64,000 bases of DNA from Geobacteraceae bacterium (GTDB taxonomy: Bacteria; Desulfobacterota; Desulfuromonadia; Desulfuromonadales; BM103): NCBI GenBank assembly GCA_024641085.1, contig JAHEDT010000001.1:62001-126000 (forward strand), written 5' to 3'. The translations under genes and the position numbers were made by a program. This document shows, one piece after another, positions 29,094 to 41,210 of this stretch. The stretch's first letter is position 1. Each line of letters opens with the position of its first letter. The notes beneath the pieces were generated by a model, which saw only the letters and a program-made list of their open reading frames with translations, made no database searches and was not told the DNA's origin.

Positions 29094-31493
29094 TCATCGG
29101 GGCCGGGCCGGCGCCGCTCTGCTGTTGCAGCTTGCAACCGCCACCAGGTAGGCCCCGGCCGCCAGCACGAGTAAAAGGCTGTAACCCACCTCTACCGCGA
29201 GCAGGGTCGCCATGGCGGCGCCAACCACCGAGCAGCAGCCGTTGATCCCCCAGGCCCAGGGGACTTGCGCCGGCTGTTCGCGATTGAGCAGGCGTAGACC
29301 GAGGGGGAAGGGCATCCCCATGACCACTGCTGCCGGGAGGAGTGCCAGGAGCGCAAGGGTGATGCGTCCCTGAAGCGCGAGCGGCAGGGTCGCCTGCAGA
29401 ATCGGCGCCAGCAGCAGGGCGTGGAGCAGCAGGGCGGCGGCAACCAGGGCGGTCCACCGCCCGGGACGCAGGCGTTTCAGGCGCCCGGTCAGCGCGCTGC
29501 CGATCGCCGAGCCGGTCAGCATGACGCCTATGACCAGCGCTGTGGCATAGACTGGCTGACCGAGGTAGAAGACGAACCGATGGATCAGGGCCAACTCCGT
29601 CCACATATAACCAATTCCCAGTCCCCCGAAATAGAGCAGCGTTCGCCAGCCGCGCCGCGTCGTTGACGGCAGGCGTGTCAAGGGCAGCAGGATCAGCACG
29701 GTTGCCAGGAAGACCAGGACCAGCGCGGCAAGCCCGGCGACCAGCAGCCCCGACTCGAGAAACGGCAGGGTGCGCTGGCCGTACAGGGCGAGCATGGCCT
29801 CGAGGCGGTACCAGCGCAGGAACTGGGCGAAGAACGGCCGGTCATCGCTCACCGGCTGGATGCGGAAAGCGTAGTCGTTGTAGAGTGTTGTGCGCCGCTC
29901 ATCGAAGAGTGCCTCGAGCAGCGTGAGGAAGGTGCCGTCCTGCAGGCGATTGTGGGTTTGCCGTTCCTCTGCCTGCAGTCCGGGGAGCAGAGCCGGGTCG
30001 AAGGACCAGCGGGTTGCGAACGCCCTGACCCGCTGTACCTCAGCCGCTTTGAATGGCGTGCGCTTGACACAGAAGGTGATGGTGCCCCAGCTGCGCACGG
30101 CAGCGATGTGGGCCGCTGGATCGCTGACTCCGGCATTGACGAGCATCTCAACCAGGCTGGCGGCCAGCCGCACCGGGGTTCGCACAGGGTAGTCGACCCA
30201 GGCGGTGATTGCCAGCAGGCCCTCGGGAGAGAGCCTCTGCCAGGCCTGACCCAGTGCCTCTCGGGTCAGCAGCGGCTGCTCATGCAGGGCGAACAGGCCG
30301 GCATTACCGCCGAAGCTGCCTGCGTCGGGCAGGATCACCAGGTCATAGCTCTGTCGGTCGCGGGCGAGCCAGGTGCGCGGGGCAGTCTGCTGCCAGGCGA
30401 CCGCGGGATCGGCGATCAGTCGGCCGAAGCTCTCCGGGGCGCTCGCGGCGAGCACTTCAGCCAGAAGTCCGTGGCTTTCAACCGCCACCACGCGGGCGGC
30501 GCCCCGGGCAAGGGCCTGGAGCACGGCGCTGCCTGTGCCGGCATCGAGCACCAGGACCTCGTGCGACATGCCCAGGGCATACGGGAGGGCATAGGTCGAG
30601 GCGTCGCGCGGATCGACTTGCCCCGGTGTAGGCGGCAAGCTGCCGACCATGTCGCCGTTGACGAATACCGCGGCGGTGCTCGGCAGGGGCCCTGACCAGT
30701 TGAGGCTGACCCCGGTGGCACTGCGCAATCCCGGGGCGGCGACCACATGGACCTGTCCGGCCGCAGCCGGATGCCGGGCGATGATTGTGGCCCCAGGCAG
30801 GTCGAGGGTGCGGCTCAGGTCCTTGTACTGGGAGAGGGGCAGTTGGGCGGGGTGCAATAGAGCGACGGACGTCAGACCCACAGCAAGCAGCAGGCCCAGG
30901 TGGTTGGCGGAGCGACGTTCCCCTGCCAGCAGAATGCCCGTCGCCGCCAGCGGCAGCATGGCGCAGAGCGGCGGCAGTTGCTGAGGCAGCAGCAGGGAGA
31001 GGCCAACCAGGCCAAGAGGGCAGCCGATTCCTGAGCCCAGCATGTTGGCAAAATAGTAGCTGCCGATCCGCTCGGCTCCGGCGGTGAAGATCAGGCCGAT
31101 GGCGAGCGCACCGCACAGGAAGGGAAGCATCAGCAGGCAGGCCACGGCGACCAGTCGCAGAAGTTCTCCGGGATCAACGAACAGCAGGAGCGAATCAAAG
31201 CCGCCGAACAGGGCTCTGGTCAGCCACAGTGCCCCGGCCAGTGCTGCGGCGCAGGCACTGAGCAGCAAAGGCAGCAGCTGGTCCTGGTGGGTCACCATCC
31301 AGTTCCGGGTCAGGGCGAGCAGCGTGCCGGCAGCACCGAAGCCGAGCAGGGCGATGGAGATGACGAACGCAGCGAAGTGGTGCCATTGGCTGGTGGCAAT
31401 GATCTGCAGCAAGGCGATCTGGAAGGCGAGCAGGGCGGCGGAGACCAGGGCCAGGGCACAATGCCGGCGATAATCCCTGCCGGTCACCCTCAT
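29094..31493 (-). CDS. Large membrane spermidine-synthase-like protein
   Basis: A 799-residue protein with three parts. The N-terminal membrane part (about 10-225) has at least six helices. A soluble Rossmann domain (about 290-530) is related to polyamine aminopropyltransferases, with a nucleotide-binding EVLVLDAGTGSAVLQALARGA and then VVAVE. The C-terminal membrane part (about 595-790) has about six helices. The Rossmann domain keeps a GTGSA-type glycine motif but not the full decarboxy-SAM motif of true spermidine synthases, so the substrate is unknown. The upstream pcm-like gene overlaps its start by 4 bases, meaning the two are translated together. Confidence 0.82.
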   Translation of the reverse strand: MRVTGRDYRRHCALALVSAALLAFQIALLQIIATSQWHHFAAFVISIALLGFGAAGTLLALTRNWMVTHQDQLLPLLLSACAAALAGALWLTRALFGGFDSLLLFVDPGELLRLVAVACLLMLPFLCGALAIGLIFTAGAERIGSYYFANMLGSGIGCPLGLVGLSLLLPQQLPPLCAMLPLAATGILLAGERRSANHLGLLLAVGLTSVALLHPAQLPLSQYKDLSRTLDLPGATIIARHPAAAGQVHVVAAPGLRSATGVSLNWSGPLPSTAAVFVNGDMVGSLPPTPGQVDPRDASTYALPYALGMSHEVLVLDAGTGSAVLQALARGAARVVAVESHGLLAEVLAASAPESFGRLIADPAVAWQQTAPRTWLARDRQSYDLVILPDAGSFGGNAGLFALHEQPLLTREALGQAWQRLSPEGLLAITAWVDYPVRTPVRLAASLVEMLVNAGVSDPAAHIAAVRSWGTITFCVKRTPFKAAEVQRVRAFATRWSFDPALLPGLQAEERQTHNRLQDGTFLTLLEALFDERRTTLYNDYAFRIQPVSDDRPFFAQFLRWYRLEAMLALYGQRTLPFLESGLLVAGLAALVLVFLATVLILLPLTRLPSTTRRGWRTLLYFGGLGIGYMWTELALIHRFVFYLGQPVYATALVIGVMLTGSAIGSALTGRLKRLRPGRWTALVAAALLLHALLLAPILQATLPLALQGRITLALLALLPAAVVMGMPFPLGLRLLNREQPAQVPWAWGINGCCSVVGAAMATLLAVEVGYSLLLVLAAGAYLVAVASCNSRAAPARPR

Positions 31494-33739: not shown

Positions 33740-34891
33740 ATGTCCATCAACTACCTCACCAAAATCACGCAGATCCCAGATCTGTCCGATGCGGAGCTCC
33801 GGCAGCTCGGCAAGGTCGTGAAAAAATTTGCTTTCCGCAGCAACAGCTATTACCAGGCGCTGATCGACTGGTCCGACCCTGACGACCCCATTCGCCGCCT
33901 GGTGGTCCCGCATGCGGATGAACTGCTGGACTGGGGCGCCTACGATGCCTCCGGCGAAGCTGACTACAGCATCCGCCCCGGCCTCGAACACAAATATCCG
34001 GATACCGCCCTGCTGCTGGTCAACAACGTATGCGGGGCCTTTTGCCGGTTCTGCTTTCGCAAGCGGCTCTTCATGAAGGGCAACCTGGAGACGGTTCGCG
34101 ATGTCCGTCAGGACCTCGCCTACATCCGTGCGCACCCGGAGATCAGCAACGTGCTGTTGACCGGGGGCGACCCCCTGCTGATGGCGGCCAGCCGGCTGGC
34201 CCCGATCCTGGAAAAGCTGACCCGCATAGGGCATGTGCGCATCATCCGCATTGGCAGCAAAATGACCGCCTTCAACCCGGAGCGGATCAGCCGCGACCCG
34301 GACCTTTTACGGCTCTTCGAGAAAACCGTGCAGAGCGGCACCCAACTCTATCTGATGAACCATTTCAACCACCCCCGAGAGTTGACGCCGCAAGCCGTAT
34401 CCGCCCTGCGCCTGCTTGCCAATGCCGGAGTGATGCTCACCAATCAGACGCCCATGATCAAGGGCGTCAACGATGATCCCATGGTTTTAAGCGAGCTGTT
34501 CAACCGCCTCTCGTTCCTTGGCGTCCCGCCATACTATGTCTTTCAGTGTCGACCGACCAGGGGCAACTACATCTATACGCTGCCCCTCGAGCAGGCTTAC
34601 CGGAACTTTATCGATGCCTGGCGCCATTCGAGCGGCCTGGCACGCCGGGCGCGGTTTGTCATGTCGCACCAGAGTGGCAAGATCGAGGTCACCGGTCTGA
34701 CCAGGGGGCACATTCTGTTCCGCTACCACCGCGCCCCTAATCCGGTCAATGACGGTAAAATTATCATTTGCCGGCGCAATCCGCGTGGCATCTGGTTCGA
34801 CGATTTCGTCAAGGTTGATGCGCTGAGCGACAGCCTGGTTGAGGAACAGCGTGACAACAGAGGAAACCACGCCTGGGAAAAACACGCCTGA
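33740..34891 (+). CDS. KamA-family radical SAM aminomutase-like protein, substrate unknown
   Basis: A 383-residue member of the lysine 2,3-aminomutase family, which uses a 4Fe-4S cluster, SAM and PLP to move an amino group. The cluster motif is C98-x3-C102-x2-C105 (CGAFCRFC) and the PLP lysine lies in SHQSGKIEV. The two Asp that hold the side-chain amine of lysine in clostridial KamA (in VCDLS and VVDAPGGGGK) are replaced: the first motif reads QCRPT (Arg) and the second FVMSHQSGK (Met). So lysine is unlikely to be the substrate, and an acidic amino acid is a reasonable guess. Start ATG 33740 has AGAGGAGAG upstream. It converges on hutC. Confidence 0.87.
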   Translation: MSINYLTKITQIPDLSDAELRQLGKVVKKFAFRSNSYYQALIDWSDPDDPIRRLVVPHADELLDWGAYDASGEADYSIRPGLEHKYPDTALLLVNNVCGAFCRFCFRKRLFMKGNLETVRDVRQDLAYIRAHPEISNVLLTGGDPLLMAASRLAPILEKLTRIGHVRIIRIGSKMTAFNPERISRDPDLLRLFEKTVQSGTQLYLMNHFNHPRELTPQAVSALRLLANAGVMLTNQTPMIKGVNDDPMVLSELFNRLSFLGVPPYYVFQCRPTRGNYIYTLPLEQAYRNFIDAWRHSSGLARRARFVMSHQSGKIEVTGLTRGHILFRYHRAPNPVNDGKIIICRRNPRGIWFDDFVKVDALSDSLVEEQRDNRGNHAWEKHA

Positions 34892-34933: not shown

Positions 34934-35641
34934 TTACGAGCGGGAACTCAGTCGATAACGGCTGCCGGGATGAATCAGGCGGGCATAGCTGATCAGTCGT
35001 CCTTCCGACCAGGTCCGGCGGTTGACCTGCAGGCAGGGTTCCCCGTTGTCGATCTTGAGCAGTTGACAGCTCTCCTGGTCGGGGAGGACTGCCTCGACGA
35101 TATGTTCGATGTCTGACAGGGGGAAGAGTTCACTCAGGTACTGGTTCGGCGTCATCCGGGAGAAATCCTGCTCGATGTAGCCGGGGACAATGGCCGCATC
35201 GACATAGCGGTCCTCGATCTGGATCGGCACCCCATTCTCCTTGTGCAGGATCAGCGAATGGAAGACGCCGCTGCCGTTGACGACCCCGAGGCGTGCGGCG
35301 ACTTCTGCCGTTGCCCGCTCCTTGACCAGCAGGCAGAGTTCATTGCTGTAGACGTGCTGCCGGGCCCTGACCTCATCAGCGATGTTGCGGATTTCCAGCA
35401 GTGGCGACTCCGCCTGAATGTCGGCGACGAAAGTTCCCAAACCCTGGTGCCGGACCAGGATCCCCTCGTTCACCAACTCCCTGATTGCCCGGTTGGCGGT
35501 CATGCGGCTGACCTTGAACCTTCTGGCCAGTTCGATTTCCGCGGGGACCTGACTGTCGGGCGGGTAAGTGTGGTCTTTGATCCCCCGGTAGATAAATTCT
35601 TTGATCCTCTGGTAGCGGGGCTGTACTTTTGATGCTCGCAT
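34934..35641 (-). CDS. hutC: Histidine utilization repressor HutC (GntR family)
   Basis: A 235-residue GntR/HutC-type repressor. The N-terminal winged helix includes PAEIELARRFKVSRMTANRAIRELVNEGILVRHQGLGTFV (about 33-72) and the C-terminal UTRA domain binds the effector, normally urocanate (IQIEDRYVDAAIVPGYIEQDF, SYARLIHPGSRYRLSSR). It is divergent from hutI, and a perfect 14-base palindrome at 35745-35758 between them is its likely operator. It should repress the hut operon until histidine is degraded to urocanate. Confidence 0.93.
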   Translation of the reverse strand: MRASKVQPRYQRIKEFIYRGIKDHTYPPDSQVPAEIELARRFKVSRMTANRAIRELVNEGILVRHQGLGTFVADIQAESPLLEIRNIADEVRARQHVYSNELCLLVKERATAEVAARLGVVNGSGVFHSLILHKENGVPIQIEDRYVDAAIVPGYIEQDFSRMTPNQYLSELFPLSDIEHIVEAVLPDQESCQLLKIDNGEPCLQVNRRTWSEGRLISYARLIHPGSRYRLSSRS

Positions 35642-35715
35642 TTTGTCTCCACCGCATGCTCTGTGCGGGTTCGCCGATCATGATAAAATAATTGCAGACT
35701 TTTCAACTCAAGGGC

Positions 35716-35746
35716 TTGCACTTGAGCGATCGTAGATGTATATAAT
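35716..35746 (+). promoter_or_regulatory. Candidate hut operon promoter
   Basis: A perfect -10 TATAAT (35741-35746) with a TTGCAC (35716-35721) upstream at a longer than usual spacing of 19 bases. The -10 touches the HutC palindrome, so bound repressor would block RNA polymerase. Confidence 0.5.
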
Positions 35747-35758
35747 TGTATATACAAT
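35745..35758. promoter_or_regulatory. HutC operator palindrome
   Basis: ATTGTATATACAAT, a perfect 14-base palindrome that overlaps the -10 of the hut promoter and matches the TTGTATxTACAA-type site known for HutC repressors. It lies 22 bases before hutI. Confidence 0.75.
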
Positions 35759-35780
35759 GCCGGGAAAGGTAAAGCCGTAG

Positions 35781-37031
35781 ATGCATAAAAACCAATTTTC
35801 CCACTGCGAGCGGATCCTGGTCAACGTTCGGATGGCGACCCTCGATCCGGCTGTTGGCGCCCCCTACGGTCTGCTCGACAGTCATATCCTGGCTATTTGC
35901 CAGGGTCGCATAGCGAAGCTCCTGCCTCGGCATGAGGCCGATTTGTCCGACTTTGACGGTGAGATTATCGATGGGCAGGGCGGGTGGCTGACCCCCGGGC
36001 TGATCGACAGCCACACGCACCTGGTCTACGGTGGCCATCGGGCCCGTGAATTCGAACAGCGCCTGCTGGGGAAAAGCTACGAAGAGATCAGCCGGGCCGG
36101 CGGCGGCATTCTGTCAACGGTCAGGGCCACCCGCGGCCTGAGCCAGGAGCAGCTGGTCGTCCAGGCCCGGCCGCGACTCGAGGCCCTGCTGGGTGAAGGG
36201 GTCACCACCGTCGAGATCAAGTCCGGCTACGGTCTGACCGTAGCGGACGAGCTCAAGATCCTGCGTGCGGCCAAGGCCCTGGTCGCAGAGTATCCGGTGC
36301 GTGTCAGCACCACCCTGCTGGCAGCCCACTGCGTGCCTCCTGAGTTCCGCAGTGAGCCGGACCGCTATGTCGAGGTGATTTGCCAGGAGCTGCTGCCACA
36401 GGTGGTCGAGGAACATCTGGCCGATGCGGTCGATGTCTTCTGCGAGACGATTGCTTTTACCCTGCAGCAGAGCGAGCGCATTTTTGCTGCTGCTCGGCAG
36501 GCGGGGCTGGGCATAAAGGTCCATGCCGAGCAGCTCTCGCTCAGCGGAGGCGCCGCACTGGCGGCCGGCTTCGGGGCCTGGTCCGCCGATCACCTTGAAC
36601 ACCTTGACGAGGCCGGGATCCTGGCGCTGCAAGCGTCTGGAACAGTGGCCACGCTGCTGCCCGGCGCCTTCTATTTCCTGCAGGAGCACCGCAAGCCGCC
36701 GGTGGGCTTGCTGCGTCACCATGGTGTCCCCATGGCCCTGGCCACCGATCTCAACCCGGGGACCAGCCCCCTGGCGTCGCTCCGGCTGATGCTGAACATG
36801 GGCTGTACCCTTTTCGGGCTGACGCCTGAAGAGGCGTTGGCAGGGGTGACGCGCAACGCGGCAAAGGCCCTGGGGCAGGGTGACGTCCTGGGAACCCTGC
36901 ACGTCGGCAAGCAGGCGGACCTGCTGCTCTGGGATATCGAGCACCCGGCTCAACTGGCCGGGGAGTTCGGGAGCCTGCGGCCACGGCAGCGGATTGTCCG
37001 GGGGGAGGTCGTTCATGCATCACACGGCTGA
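35781..37031 (+). CDS. hutI: Imidazolonepropionase
   Basis: A 416-residue amidohydrolase that opens 4-imidazolone-5-propanoate to N-formimino-L-glutamate, third step of histidine degradation. Metal ligands are visible: the HTH in [20 protein letters not shown], then His in VHAEQLS, and Asp in [10 protein letters not shown] near the end. The arginine-rich substrate segment EIKSGYGL is also present. It is the first gene of the hut operon, under the HutC palindrome. hutG starts 17 bases before its stop. Confidence 0.95.
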
Positions 37032-37998
37032 CATGAACCTCTGGCGGGGAAGGACCGATATCGAACCGGGTGGGAGGGCGTTGCGCTGGCACCAGGTGGT
37101 CACGCCTTTGCCCCTGGACGGTGAACCGCCCGGTGTTGCATTACTGGGGCTGTGCAGCGACGAGGGGGTCAAGCGCAATCATGGCCGCCCCGGCGCCCGC
37201 AAAGGACCGGATGCAATCCGCCAGGCGCTGGCCGGCCTGGCCTGCCACCTGCGCCGCCCCCTCTACGACGCCGGCAACCTGGTGCCTGAGAACGATGATC
37301 TCGAAGCGCTGCAGCAGGAGCAGGCCGGGCTGGTCGCAGAGCTGCTGGCGCGGGGGCATTTTCCGCTCCTGCTCGGCGGCGGACATGAGATCGCGTTCGG
37401 CAGTTACCTCGGTCTGGTTCGCGCTTCGGGTAAAGATGTGTCCGCGCAGGTCGGGATCATCAATTTCGATCCCCATTTCGACTTGCGCTTCGGTCCCGTT
37501 GCCAGCTCCGGAACCCCCTTCCGACAGATCGCCGACGATTGTCAGGCCAATGGTCGAAATTTTTCTTACTTCTGTGCCGGAGTGAGCGAGACGGCCAACA
37601 CGGTCGCGCTGTTTGAGCGGGCGGCGGCGCTTGGCGTGCATTACCTCAAAGATGAAGAACTCACGTCCTGGACATTGAGCAGCGCGGAGCAGCGCCTGGA
37701 GGAATTTATCGACCGCTGCGATACTCTTTATCTGAGTATCGATCTGGATGTTCTGCCGGCTGCCGTCGCCCCGGGTGTGAGTGCCCCGGCAGCACGGGGA
37801 CTGCCCCTGGAACTGCTGGAGCACCTGCTCTGCTACATAGTCAGGCATGCCGGAGACAGGCTCAAGCTGGCGGACATTGCCGAATACAACCCGGAGTTCG
37901 ATATCGATGGGCGAACCGCCAGGGTGGCGGCTCGCCTCTGTCATCTCCTGGTGCGAGCCCCCTCCGTAACTTCAACACACAGCAAAGGTGAAGCATGA
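37015..37998 (+). CDS. hutG: Formimidoylglutamase
   Basis: A 327-residue arginase-superfamily enzyme that hydrolyses N-formimino-L-glutamate to glutamate and formamide. The binuclear metal motifs are GGGHEIAFG (about 124-132), NFDPHFDLR and [19 protein letters not shown]. This is the one-step route; a formiminotransferase or deiminase route is not seen here. I chose ATG 37015, after GGGGGAGG; ATG 37033 (MNLWRGRTD) is also possible. It overlaps hutI by 17 bases and hutU by 4. Confidence 0.94.
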
Positions 37999-39671
37999 TG
38001 AATAAACGACTCGATCCCCGGCGCCGGATCCGCGCCGCGCGGGGAACAGAACTGAGTGCCAAAAGCTGGTTGACCGAAGCGCCCCTGCGCATGCTGATGA
38101 ACAACCTCGATCCCGAAGTTGCCGAACGCCCCGAAGAGCTGGTGGTCTACGGCGGGATCGGCCGTGCGGCCCGCGACTGGACCTGCTACGACAAGATCGT
38201 CGAGGTCCTGCAGCGCCTGGATGAGGACGAGACCCTGCTGGTGCAGTCGGGTAAACCGGTGGCCGTATTCAAGACCCACCCGGATGCGCCGCGGGTGCTG
38301 ATCGCCAACTCCAACCTGGTGCCGCACTGGGCCTCCTGGGAGCATTTCAACGAACTGGATCGCAAGGGGCTGATGATGTACGGGCAGATGACCGCCGGGT
38401 CCTGGATCTACATCGGCTCGCAGGGAATCGTCCAGGGGACCTACGAGACCTTTGTCGCCGTGGCCAAGCAACATTTTTCCGGTGACGCCAGTGGGCGCTG
38501 GATTCTGACCGGCGGCCTCGGCGGCATGGGCGGGGCTCAACCCCTGGCGGCAACCATGGCCGGTTTTGCCATGCTGGCGGTTGAGTGCGACGAGACCCGC
38601 ATCGATAAACGCCTTGAGACCGGCTACCTGGACTACAAGGTGACCGATCTCGATCAGGCGCTGGCGATGATCAATGAGGCGGTCCGCAAGCGCCAGGCCA
38701 TCTCCGTCGGCCTGCTCGGCAACTGTGCCGAAGTGCTCCCGGAACTGGTCAAGCGCGGGGTCACACCGGATGTCTGCACCGACCAGACCAGTGCCCACGA
38801 TCCCCTCAACGGGTATCTGCCGGCGGGCTGGTCCCTGGAGCGGGCGGAACGCCTGCGCCGGGAAGATCCCGAGAGTGTGGTTAAGGCGGCCCGAAGCTCG
38901 ATCGCCGTCCATGTCAGGGCGATGCTGGCCCTCCAGGAACGGGGTGCCGTGACTCTCGATTACGGCAACAACATCCGCCAGGTGGCGCTGGAGGAAGGGG
39001 TGGCCCGGGCCTTCGATTTCCCCGGCTTTGTCCCCGCCTACATCCGACCGCTGTTCTGCGAGGGGACCGGTCCCTTCCGCTGGGTGGCGCTCTCCGGGGA
39101 TCCCGAGGACATCTACAGGACCGACGCCAAGGTCAAGGAACTGATCCCGGACAATCCCCACCTGCACAACTGGCTCGACATGGCCAGGGAGCGCATCCAA
39201 TTCCAGGGGCTGCCGTCGCGGATCTGCTGGGTCGGCCTCAAGGACCGGGCCCGCCTCGGTCTCGCCTTCAACGAGATGGTGGCTAAAGGCGAACTCAAGG
39301 CGCCGATCGTCATCGGCCGCGATCATCTCGATTCGGGTTCGGTTGCCAGCCCCAACCGGGAAACCGAAGGGATGGCCGATGGATCTGACGCCGTTTCCGA
39401 CTGGCCGCTCCTTAATGCCCTGACCAGCACCGCCGGCGGTGCGACCTGGGTGAGCCTGCATCACGGCGGCGGGGTCGGCATGGGCTTCAGCCAGCATGCC
39501 GGCATGGTTATCGTTGCCGATGGCACCGATGCCGCGGCGAAGCGTCTGCAACGGGTCTTATGGAACGACCCCGGGATCGGGGTGGCGCGGCATGCCGATG
39601 CCGGCTACCGGATCGCCATCGACTGCGCACACGACAACGGCCTCGACCTGCCAATGCTGGAGGAGGAATAG
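37995..39671 (+). CDS. hutU: Urocanate hydratase
   Basis: A 558-residue NAD-dependent enzyme that converts urocanate to imidazolonepropionate; the length is exactly typical. Conserved segments: [52 protein letters not shown] (NAD binding) and [11 protein letters not shown] (active site). The C terminus includes [25 protein letters not shown]. It starts with ATGATGA overlapping the hutG stop, and hutH begins directly after its stop. Confidence 0.96.
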
Positions 39672-41210
39672 ATGTTCACACTGGCTCTCAACCCCGGTCA
39701 TTTGACCTTGCAGGAACTGCGTCGCGTGGCGAAGCAACCGGTCGCTGTGCATTTTACCCCAGGCTGCCGCCAGCGTATCGAAGAGTCTGTGACGACCGTC
39801 AAAGAGGTGGTCGCACAGGGCCGGGTCATCTACGGGATCAATACCGGTTTCGGCCTGCTGGCCAACAAGGTGATTCCCAATCAGGAACTGGAGAAACTGC
39901 AGCGCTCCATCGTGCTGTCACATGCCGCCGGGACCGGCGAAATGATGAGCGAGGCGACGGTGCGCCTGCTGCTGGTCCTGAAGATCAACAGTCTGGCGCG
40001 CGGTTATTCCGGGATCCGTTTTGAAGTGATCGAGGCGCTGATGAAACTGGTCAACGCCGAGGTTTACCCCTGCATCCCGCAAAAAGGCTCGGTCGGGGCT
40101 TCCGGGGACCTGGCCCCCCTGGCCCACATGAGCACGGTCCTGCTCGGCGAGGGTGAAGTCTTCCATCGCGGTGAACGACTGCCGGGTCGGCGTGGGCTGG
40201 ACATCGCCGGACTCGCACCGATCACCCTCGGCCCCAAGGAGGGGCTGGCGCTGCTCAACGGGACCCAGGCGTCAACGGCCTTTGCCCTCGAGGGTCTGTT
40301 CATGGCCGAGGACCTGTTTGCCGCAGCCATGGTCAGTGGTAGCCTCAGTGTTGAAGCGGCTCTCGGCAGCCGACGGCCCTTCGACCCCCGCATCCATGAG
40401 GTGCGCGGCCACCGCGGCCAGATCGATACGGCGGCGACTTTTGCACAACTGCTCGAGCACAGCGAAATTGAAGACTCGCACCGCGAATGCGAGGCGGTCC
40501 AGGATCCCTATTCGCTGCGTTGTCAACCGCAGGTGATGGGGGCGTGTCTGGACCAGATCCGCCATGCTGCCGGGGTGCTGCTTATTGAAGCCAATGCGGT
40601 TTCCGACAATCCGCTGGTGTTCTCCGACGCCTGCGACATCATCTCCGGCGGCAACTTTCATGCCGAACCGGTTGCCCTGGTCGCCGACAACCTGGCCCTG
40701 GTCCTGGCGGAAATTGGCGCGCTCTCGGAGCGGCGCACGGCCCTGCTGATCGATGCCAACCTGAGCAAGCTGCCGCCCTTTCTGGTCGAAAAAGGCGGCC
40801 TCAACTCAGGCTTCATGATCGCCCAGGTGACCGCGGCGGCCCTGGCCAGCGAGAATAAATCGCTGGCCCATCCCGCTTCGGTCGACAGTCTGCCGACCTC
40901 TGCCAACCAGGAAGACCATGTGTCCATGGCCACCTTCGCGGCCCGCAGGCTCAAGGACATGGGAGAGAACACGGCCGTTATCCTGGCGGTGGAACTGCTG
41001 GCCGCCTGCCAGGGGGTTGATTTTCGTGCCCCGCTTAAAACTTCGGCAAAGCTGGAGCAGGCCCGGCAGCTGTTGCGCCAGCAGGTGCCGTTTTACGATC
41101 AGGATCGGTATTTCGCTCCTGATATCGAGAAAGCCAAACAGCTGATTCGCTCCGGGGTTTATGGCGCCTTTGTCCCTGGGGAGTTGCTGCCGAGCCTGGC
41201 TGTTGAATAA
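39672..41210 (+). CDS. hutH: Histidine ammonia-lyase
   Basis: A 512-residue lyase that removes ammonia from histidine to form urocanate, the first step of the pathway. The MIO cofactor triad Ala143-Ser144-Gly145 lies in [15 protein letters not shown], and the catalytic Tyr region YGINTGFG is at about 54-61. The final part includes [15 protein letters not shown]. It is the last hut gene; the operon has no histidine permease, so uptake must be coded elsewhere. No strong terminator is seen before the convergent ZIP gene. Confidence 0.96.

What the first reader, a model, noticed from the sequence alone, without database searches (positions are those of the whole stretch)
33740..34891. KamA homologue that lost both lysine-binding aspartates
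In clostridial lysine 2,3-aminomutase, Asp293 (VCDLS) and Asp330 (VVDAPGGGGK) bind the side-chain amine. Here the motifs read QCRPT and FVMSHQSGK, giving Arg and Met, while cluster Cys and PLP Lys are kept. An Arg at the side-chain pocket points to an acidic substrate. This may be a new aminomutase making a beta-amino acid.
Basis: partly seen in the sequence, partly recalled or inferred. Interest (0 to 1): 0.6.

Follow-up and report, generated by a model that had tools for sequence, protein, structure and literature searches.

The report
Arginine-pocket aminomutase, probably a β-glutamate maker
This gene encodes a relative of lysine 2,3-aminomutase whose side-chain pocket has swapped its two acidic residues for an arginine and a serine; it belongs to a widespread, untested lineage, filed under 'lysine 2,3-aminomutase' where annotated records were seen, that most likely turns glutamate into the salt-protective solute β-glutamate.

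Summary
The ORF at 33740-34891 (+, 383 aa, intact, under purifying selection) is a KamA-fold radical SAM protein that keeps the cluster cysteines, the PLP lysine (K314) and the α-carboxylate arginine (R107), and lacks both lysine-binding aspartates. One detail is off: profile alignment puts Ser309, not Met308, opposite LAM Asp330, so the pair is Arg271/Ser309.

This is not a one-off. Arg/Ser is invariant in all 77 R1 and R2 sequences and in the R3 and rhizobial relatives inspected. These form one side of a 100/100 branch, apart from LAM, EpmB-like proteins and authentic glutamate 2,3-aminomutase (GAM). No curated equivalog model claims the protein.

Best reading (about 0.55): a glutamate 2,3-aminomutase that gained a basic pocket independently of GAM. 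Support: GAM has Lys/Asn at the same positions; one genus carries either GAM or this enzyme; Arg-type and GAM genes never share a genome in 516 tested; in Aquificota the gene marks marine lineages; an Arg-type gene sits in a Streptomyces macrolactam cluster matching the incednine β-glutamate cassette. Substrate is untested. The hut neighbourhood is genus-specific and convergent, so probably incidental.

The parts
33740..34891 (+). R-type KamA homologue ORF (383 aa, ATG start, stop included)
   Evidence: AF2 model mean pLDDT 83 with 2a5h as best match, Z 32.8
33992..34006 (+). K85 and T89: replace LAM R112 and R116; invariant in R1, R2 and M-type clades
34031..34054 (+). [4Fe-4S] cluster motif C98-x3-C102-x2-C105
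34058..34060 (+). R107, equivalent of LAM Arg134 (alpha-carboxylate binder), kept
   Evidence: role of R134 from knowledge of the LAM structure
34550..34552 (+). R271 codon, opposite LAM Asp293
34664..34669 (+). S309-H310; S309 opposite LAM Asp330
34679..34681 (+). K314, PLP-lysine equivalent (LAM Lys337)
34793..34804 (+). C-terminal W-F-D-D motif (W352-D355), shared by R1/R2/M clades, absent from LAM/GAM/E

Best explanation
The protein is a SAM-, [4Fe-4S]- and PLP-dependent 2,3-aminomutase acting on glutamate. By analogy with LAM, SAM is cleaved at the cluster to a 5'-deoxyadenosyl radical, glutamate sits as an aldimine on PLP (K314 in the resting enzyme) with its alpha-carboxylate on R107, the radical takes the C3 hydrogen, the amino group migrates from C2 to C3 through an azacyclopropylcarbinyl radical, and beta-glutamate (3-aminoglutarate) is released. 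R271, helped by S309, holds the gamma-carboxylate in place of the two aspartates that hold the lysine epsilon-amine. The product probably serves as an anionic compatible solute, so a single standalone gene suffices. SHOWN: fold, cluster and PLP residues, R/S pocket, conservation, separate lineage, standalone context, no co-occurrence with GAM. INFERRED: the aminomutase chemistry (from family), the acidic substrate (from pocket), glutamate in particular (from GAM, incednine context and distribution), and the solute role.
For: Pocket position equivalence: LAM D/D, GAM K/N (and K/T), R-type R/S, each clade-fixed. R-type lies on one side of a 100/100 branch and GAM is nested on the LAM side, so the basic pocket arose separately. 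In one genus (g69) the only KamA is GAM in G281 and R1 in G235 and G395; that GAM gene follows a c-di-AMP riboswitch, an osmotic-stress signal. R1/R2, R3 and GAM never share a genome: 47 vs 22 of 121 Aquificota, 33 vs 12 vs 3 of 395 in the own phylum, no overlap. No GAM in 121 Aquificota, yet Aquifex pyrophilus is listed among organisms accumulating glutamate, 'alpha- and beta-form', under salt stress (PMC3694870). Streptomyces NBC_00334: R3 kamA lies in a PKS cluster with a VinJ-type hydrolase, two AMP-binding enzymes, a carrier protein, an acyltransferase and an adjacent PLP enzyme; in incednine the radical SAM enzyme IdnL4 is required for 3-aminobutyrate made from L-Glu via beta-glutamate (PMC11284099). 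An R2-like gene lies 132 bp upstream of otsA-otsB. No conserved partner gene.
Against: No biochemistry. IdnL4's own sequence could not be placed in the tree, and its activity was not seen in vitro (PMC11284099). Desulfurobacterium thermolithotrophum (G455, marine) lacks an R-type gene. Non-co-occurrence is confounded by phylogeny; the Aquificota probability of 5e-6 assumes independent genomes. No c-di-AMP or Na+ riboswitch was found at the R-type loci scanned or in the window. Rhizobial and Rhodococcus R-type genes sit with diaminobutyrate or N-hydroxylation genes, so substrates may vary in the lineage. A review reports that NMR ruled out a glutamate aminomutase route in methanogens (PMC1224877).
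Confidence: 0.55

Rival explanations
1. Aminomutase for another substrate with a negatively charged or strongly polar side chain (for example 2-aminoadipate, a phospho-amino acid, glutamine or asparagine), with R271 binding that group.
For: R/S is conserved across contexts with different chemistry: rhizobial ectB/asd/ATP-grasp and Rhodococcus SidA/cupin clusters, NRPS clusters.
Against: GAM's K/N at the same positions, the one-for-one swap in genus g69, and the incednine-like cassette all point to glutamate.
Confidence: 0.22
2. A lysine-family aminomutase in which another acidic pair (for example the C-terminal W-x-D-D, or E316) took over epsilon-amine binding, so the substrate is still lysine, ornithine or arginine.
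For: D354/D355 and E316 are invariant or nearly so and new relative to LAM.
Against: An invariant arginine in the pocket would repel a cationic side chain; W352/D354 are also invariant in the M-type clade, which lacks the Arg; the own genome already has two D/D paralogues.
Confidence: 0.08
3. A radical SAM/PLP enzyme with different chemistry, or one acting on a peptide or protein, using the KamA scaffold.
For: The C-terminal ~60 residues differ from LAM/GAM, K85/T89 replace R112/R116, and the gene has no conserved partner.
Against: All catalytic residues and the full LAM fold are kept.
Confidence: 0.12
4. A histidine-pathway enzyme, suggested by the adjacent complete hut cluster (hutC, I, G, U, H).
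For: hutC is 43 bp from the end of the gene and hutIGUH follow; the pathway yields glutamate.
Against: The genes are convergent, not an operon; the arrangement is seen only in this genus (G000, G001) and not in the 74-75% orthologue G025 or others.
Confidence: 0.03

Closest known systems
Glutamate 2,3-aminomutase (GAM, Eam; NCBIfam TIGR04368)
   Same: KamA fold, cluster and PLP residues, basic plus small polar residue at the D293/D330 positions; standalone gene
   Different: Lys/Asn rather than Arg/Ser; window protein scores 210 against a 650-bit cut-off; other side of a 100/100 branch; different C-terminus and a two-residue shorter loop before the PLP lysine
Lysine 2,3-aminomutase KamA/AblA (2a5h; TIGR03820)
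   Same: Fold over the whole chain (Z 32.8, 326 residues), cysteines, R134, K337 equivalents
   Different: Asp293 and Asp330 lost; R112/R116 replaced by K/T; 205 against 525 bits
IdnL4-type radical SAM enzyme of incednine biosynthesis
   Same: R3 relatives of the window protein occupy what looks like the same cassette in a Streptomyces macrolactam cluster
   Different: IdnL4 itself was not available for comparison; R3 is a separate clade from the window's R1 within the R-type lineage
EpmB (EF-P beta-lysylation, TIGR03821)
   Same: KamA superfamily
   Different: 174 against 369 bits
'M-type' KamA clade of desulfuromonads (L011-L021)
   Same: Nearest sister architecture: K85, T89, H310, E316, C-terminal W-x-D-D
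   Different: Met/Gly in place of Arg/Ser; in one locus sits in a cluster with AblA/AblB-like genes

Membership tests
KamA family radical SAM protein (TIGR00238) | score over 199.2 bits | tested here: inconclusive
   198.5 by protein scan; 199.3 with neighbours in the frame in the genome search
KamA family radical SAM protein (TIGR00238) | CxxxCxxC, PLP lysine, alpha-carboxylate Arg | tested here: met
   C98/C102/C105, K314, R107 invariant
KamA family radical SAM protein (TIGR00238) | LAM fold | tested here: met
   AF2 pLDDT 83; 2a5h Z 32.8, next entry 14.3
Lysine 2,3-aminomutase (TIGR03820) | Asp293 and Asp330 | tested here: not met
   R271 and S309
Lysine 2,3-aminomutase (TIGR03820) | equivalog cut-off 525.4 bits | tested here: not met
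   205.2
Lysine 2,3-aminomutase (TIGR03820) | activity on L-lysine | not testable with these tools
   needs assay
Glutamate 2,3-aminomutase (TIGR04368) | equivalog cut-off 650 bits | tested here: not met
   210
Glutamate 2,3-aminomutase (TIGR04368) | Lys/Asn pocket pair | tested here: not met
   Arg/Ser; GAM L147 has K/N
Glutamate 2,3-aminomutase (TIGR04368) | groups with GAM in a tree | tested here: not met
   opposite side of a 100/100 branch
Glutamate 2,3-aminomutase (TIGR04368) | converts L-Glu to beta-glutamate | not testable with these tools
   needs assay
EpmB (TIGR03821) | equivalog cut-off 369.3 bits | tested here: not met
   173.6
Arginine 2,3-aminomutase (TIGR04468) | equivalog cut-off 600 bits | tested here: not met
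   193.6
AblA-like hypothetical equivalog (TIGR03822) | cut-off 396.25 bits | tested here: not met
   203.3
IdnL4-type enzyme | sequence clusters with IdnL4 | not tested
   IdnL4 sequence not held; only cassette context compared

The most novel reading that the evidence does not exclude
A large Arg/Ser-pocket aminomutase lineage (R1, R2, R3 and rhizobial types), filed under 'lysine 2,3-aminomutase' where annotated records were seen, is a second, independently evolved glutamate 2,3-aminomutase family, and is the missing source of beta-glutamate in marine hyperthermophiles and anaerobic sediment bacteria.
Probability: 0.4. Interest if true: 0.7.

Novelty: new variant of a known kind. Interest (0 to 1): 0.52.

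Why it matters
β-Glutamate is a major osmolyte (730 mM in Nitrosopumilus maritimus, PMC8269262; methanogens and some bacteria, PMC1224877), but few of its biosynthetic genes are known. If the R-type lineage makes it, a set of genes now filed as lysine aminomutases gets a function, the osmolyte route of marine Aquificota becomes testable, and the family gives a clean case of substrate switching: D/D, K/N, R/S, M/G and E/A at the same two positions in one scaffold, useful for engineering β-amino acid synthesis.

Tried and rejected
Hut linkage: convergent, genus-only, rejected. Fused KamA proteins of 898-1223 aa (L116, L117): upstream reading in GC-rich DNA, artefact. Inositol-1-phosphate synthase (PF01658) as a marine marker: present in 113 of 121 Aquificota, uninformative. 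Adjacent PLP aminotransferase-like enzyme as a shared partner (overlapping R1 kamA in G032, next to R3 in Streptomyces and Amycolatopsis; 34-50% identity): the R1-bearing desulfuromonads carry a homologue elsewhere, no R1-less control could be run, and the G032 protein scores similarly against a generic aspartate aminotransferase model, so inconclusive. Riboswitch upstream of R-type genes: none at the loci scanned. Hits of 503-520 bits to the GAM model in G070/G108/G144: these are D/D lysine-type proteins, not GAM. Papers on Aquifex pyrophilus and Persephonella solutes are not held; only PMC3694870 gives partial support. VIA matches below 2a5h (RlmN, viperin, Z about 14) are the general radical SAM barrel.

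Full report
1. The gene. The ORF at 33740-34891 on the + strand codes for 383 aa. It is intact, has close orthologues in a same-genus genome (90%) and in another family of the order (75%), and evolves under purifying selection: dN/dS 0.060/0.420 and 0.206/1.222 by NG86. The window is part of contig C151 of a 3.5 Mb, 151-contig genome; an 89%-identical locus carries the title 'Geobacteraceae bacterium isolate Ww292' (L034). The genome has two more KamA paralogues, both with Asp/Asp pockets.

2. What it is. The best solved relative is Clostridium subterminale lysine 2,3-aminomutase 2a5h (phmmer 183 bits). An AlphaFold2 model (mean pLDDT 83, pTM 0.84) matches 2a5h at Foldseek E 2e-24 and VIA Z 32.8 over 326 residues with 4.6 A rmsd; the next entry, RlmN, has Z 14.3. 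The three cluster cysteines, the PLP lysine K314 and R107 (LAM R134) are invariant among orthologues. NCBIfam equivalogs all score far below cut-off: GAM 210/650, LAM 205/525, AblA-like 203/396, Arg aminomutase 194/600, EpmB 174/369.

3. The pocket. phmmer pairs LAM Asp293 with Arg271. For Asp330 the loop before the lysine is shorter. HHalign of family profiles gives S309 opposite D330, and the E-type clade, with a loop of the same length, gives the same register. One MAFFT run placed D330 in a gap. Conservation is complete: R271 and S309 in 60/60 R1 and 17/17 R2 sequences, with K85, T89, F106, H310 and E316 also fixed. Authentic GAM (L147, above cut-off) shows Lys and Asn at the same two columns. 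Across the superfamily the pair reads D/D (LAM and EpmB-like), K/N or K/T (GAM and relatives), E/A, M/G and R/S, each fixed in its clade.

4. The lineage. With 78 sequences, all Arg-type and Met-type proteins lie on one side of a branch with 100/100 support and length 1.13 (61 sequences). GAM lies on the other side. The Arg-type contains R1 (window, Desulfuromonadales, other members of the phylum, Aquificaceae, a Paenibacillus megaplasmid), R2 (Aquificota and others), a rhizobial plasmid type, and R3 (other Aquificota, Actinomycetota, Mycetohabitans, others). R3 reads RDTG and MSATPGK: again Arg and Ser. The annotated plasmid members seen here are mostly called 'lysine 2,3-aminomutase'; I found no record of a test for that activity.

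5. Context. No neighbour is conserved beyond close relatives in R1 and R2 loci. In Aquificaceae a 163-aa protein without a Pfam match follows. In the window the gene runs convergently towards hutC, with hutI, hutG, hutU and hutH beyond. This arrangement occurs only in this genus among the loci compared, so I treat it as incidental, although the hut pathway does yield glutamate. A standalone gene fits a one-step solute route; lysine-derived N-acetyl-β-lysine needs a second gene, ablB (PMC1224877).

6. Distribution. R1/R2 occur in 47 of 121 Aquificota and R3 in 22, with no genome holding both (8.5 expected if independent; P 5e-6 without correction for phylogeny). In the own phylum 33, 12 and 3 of 395 hold R1/R2, R3 and GAM, again with no overlap (1.0 expected between the first two, so not significant alone). 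Within one genus, G281 has GAM as its only KamA, and G235 and G395 have R1 as their only KamA. The GAM gene has a c-di-AMP riboswitch upstream, a signal of osmotic control. No GAM was found in 121 Aquificota. Some Aquificota can be named from exact contig lengths that I recall: 1,551,335 Aquifex aeolicus, 1,682,965 Thermovibrio ammonificans, 1,930,284 Persephonella marina, 1,541,968 Desulfurobacterium thermolithotrophum; terrestrial: Sulfurihydrogenibium (two), Thermocrinis (two), Hydrogenobacter, Hydrogenobaculum (two). With one more R1 genome of unknown name (G483) that I take to be marine, 4 of 5 marine and 0 of 7 terrestrial genomes have an Arg-type gene (Fisher P 0.01), and all keep an Asp/Asp paralogue. 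These names, and G483's habitat, are not shown by a tool. PMC3694870 lists Aquifex pyrophilus among organisms using glutamate in 'α- and β-form' against salt stress. My recollection that A. pyrophilus and P. marina accumulate β-glutamate could not be checked in the library.

7. The Streptomyces clue. In Streptomyces sp. NBC_00334 an R3 kamA sits between a VinJ-type proline-iminopeptidase-family hydrolase and a PLP aminotransferase-fold enzyme, amid type I PKS genes, two AMP-binding enzymes, an acyltransferase and a free carrier protein. That resembles the β-amino-acid macrolactam cassette. In incednine biosynthesis L-Glu goes through β-glutamate to 3-aminobutyrate; IdnL3 decarboxylates β-glutamate, and disruption of idnL4 confirmed that this radical SAM gene is needed, although its activity was not seen in vitro (PMC11284099). 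I could not obtain IdnL4 itself, so this is context, not homology.

8. Mechanism and confidence. Chemistry follows the LAM scheme. The γ-carboxylate of glutamate would sit on R271 with S309. M-type proteins keep K85, T89 and H310 but have Met/Gly at the two positions, which argues that R271 is a specificity residue and not part of the PLP or SAM machinery. I put 0.55 on glutamate, 0.22 on another acidic or polar substrate, 0.12 on different chemistry or a macromolecular substrate, 0.08 on a cationic substrate with a relocated acid, and 0.03 on a histidine-pathway role.

9. Verdict. A real, conserved and unassigned lineage within a known superfamily: a new variant of a known kind. The single-gene claim is modest; the lineage-wide claim would be useful because it makes the source of β-glutamate in marine bacteria directly testable.

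Noticed in passing
L067:6532-11648 (also L011, L014, L019): In one desulfuromonad locus three KamA paralogues with different pocket pairs (E/A, M/G, D/D) stand together with a gene that reads like an AblB acetyltransferase and one that reads like a retropepsin-type ATP-dependent zinc protease; pairs of paralogues lie together in other genomes. Function of the Met- and Glu-types unknown.
   Followed up: partly
L194:1-9316 (Sinorhizobium meliloti pRRI128_3) and L193: An Arg/Ser KamA lies between two genes annotated as acetyl-CoA carboxylase biotin carboxylase subunit family (ATP-grasp-like) with ectB and aspartate-semialdehyde dehydrogenase nearby on rhizobial plasmids: looks like an undescribed peptide pathway.
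   Followed up: no
L196:2996-17257 (Rhodococcus sp. DK176): R3 kamA runs with cupin, MupA-type luciferase-like, SidA/IucD/PvdA N-hydroxylase, tRNA-ligase-like and saccharopine-dehydrogenase-like genes, reminiscent of N-N bond forming clusters.
   Followed up: no
L147:545-680: c-di-AMP riboswitch directly upstream of an authentic glutamate 2,3-aminomutase gene.
   Followed up: partly
L119:3006-8451: R2-like kamA 132 bp upstream of otsA-otsB, DUF5752 and a TreT-like gene: a trehalose cluster.
   Followed up: partly
L061:11160-15927: Next to the G025 orthologue, repeated reading frames (RFIPAGAGNT / VHPRGCGEH / GSSPRVRGT) look like the type I-E CRISPR repeat, followed by a probable cas1.
   Followed up: no
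window 29094-31493 (-): 799-aa multi-pass membrane protein with a spermidine-synthase-like SAM-binding motif and no Pfam match.
   Followed up: no
window 34934-41210: Complete histidine utilisation set: hutC (-), hutI, hutG, hutU, hutH (+).
   Followed up: partly
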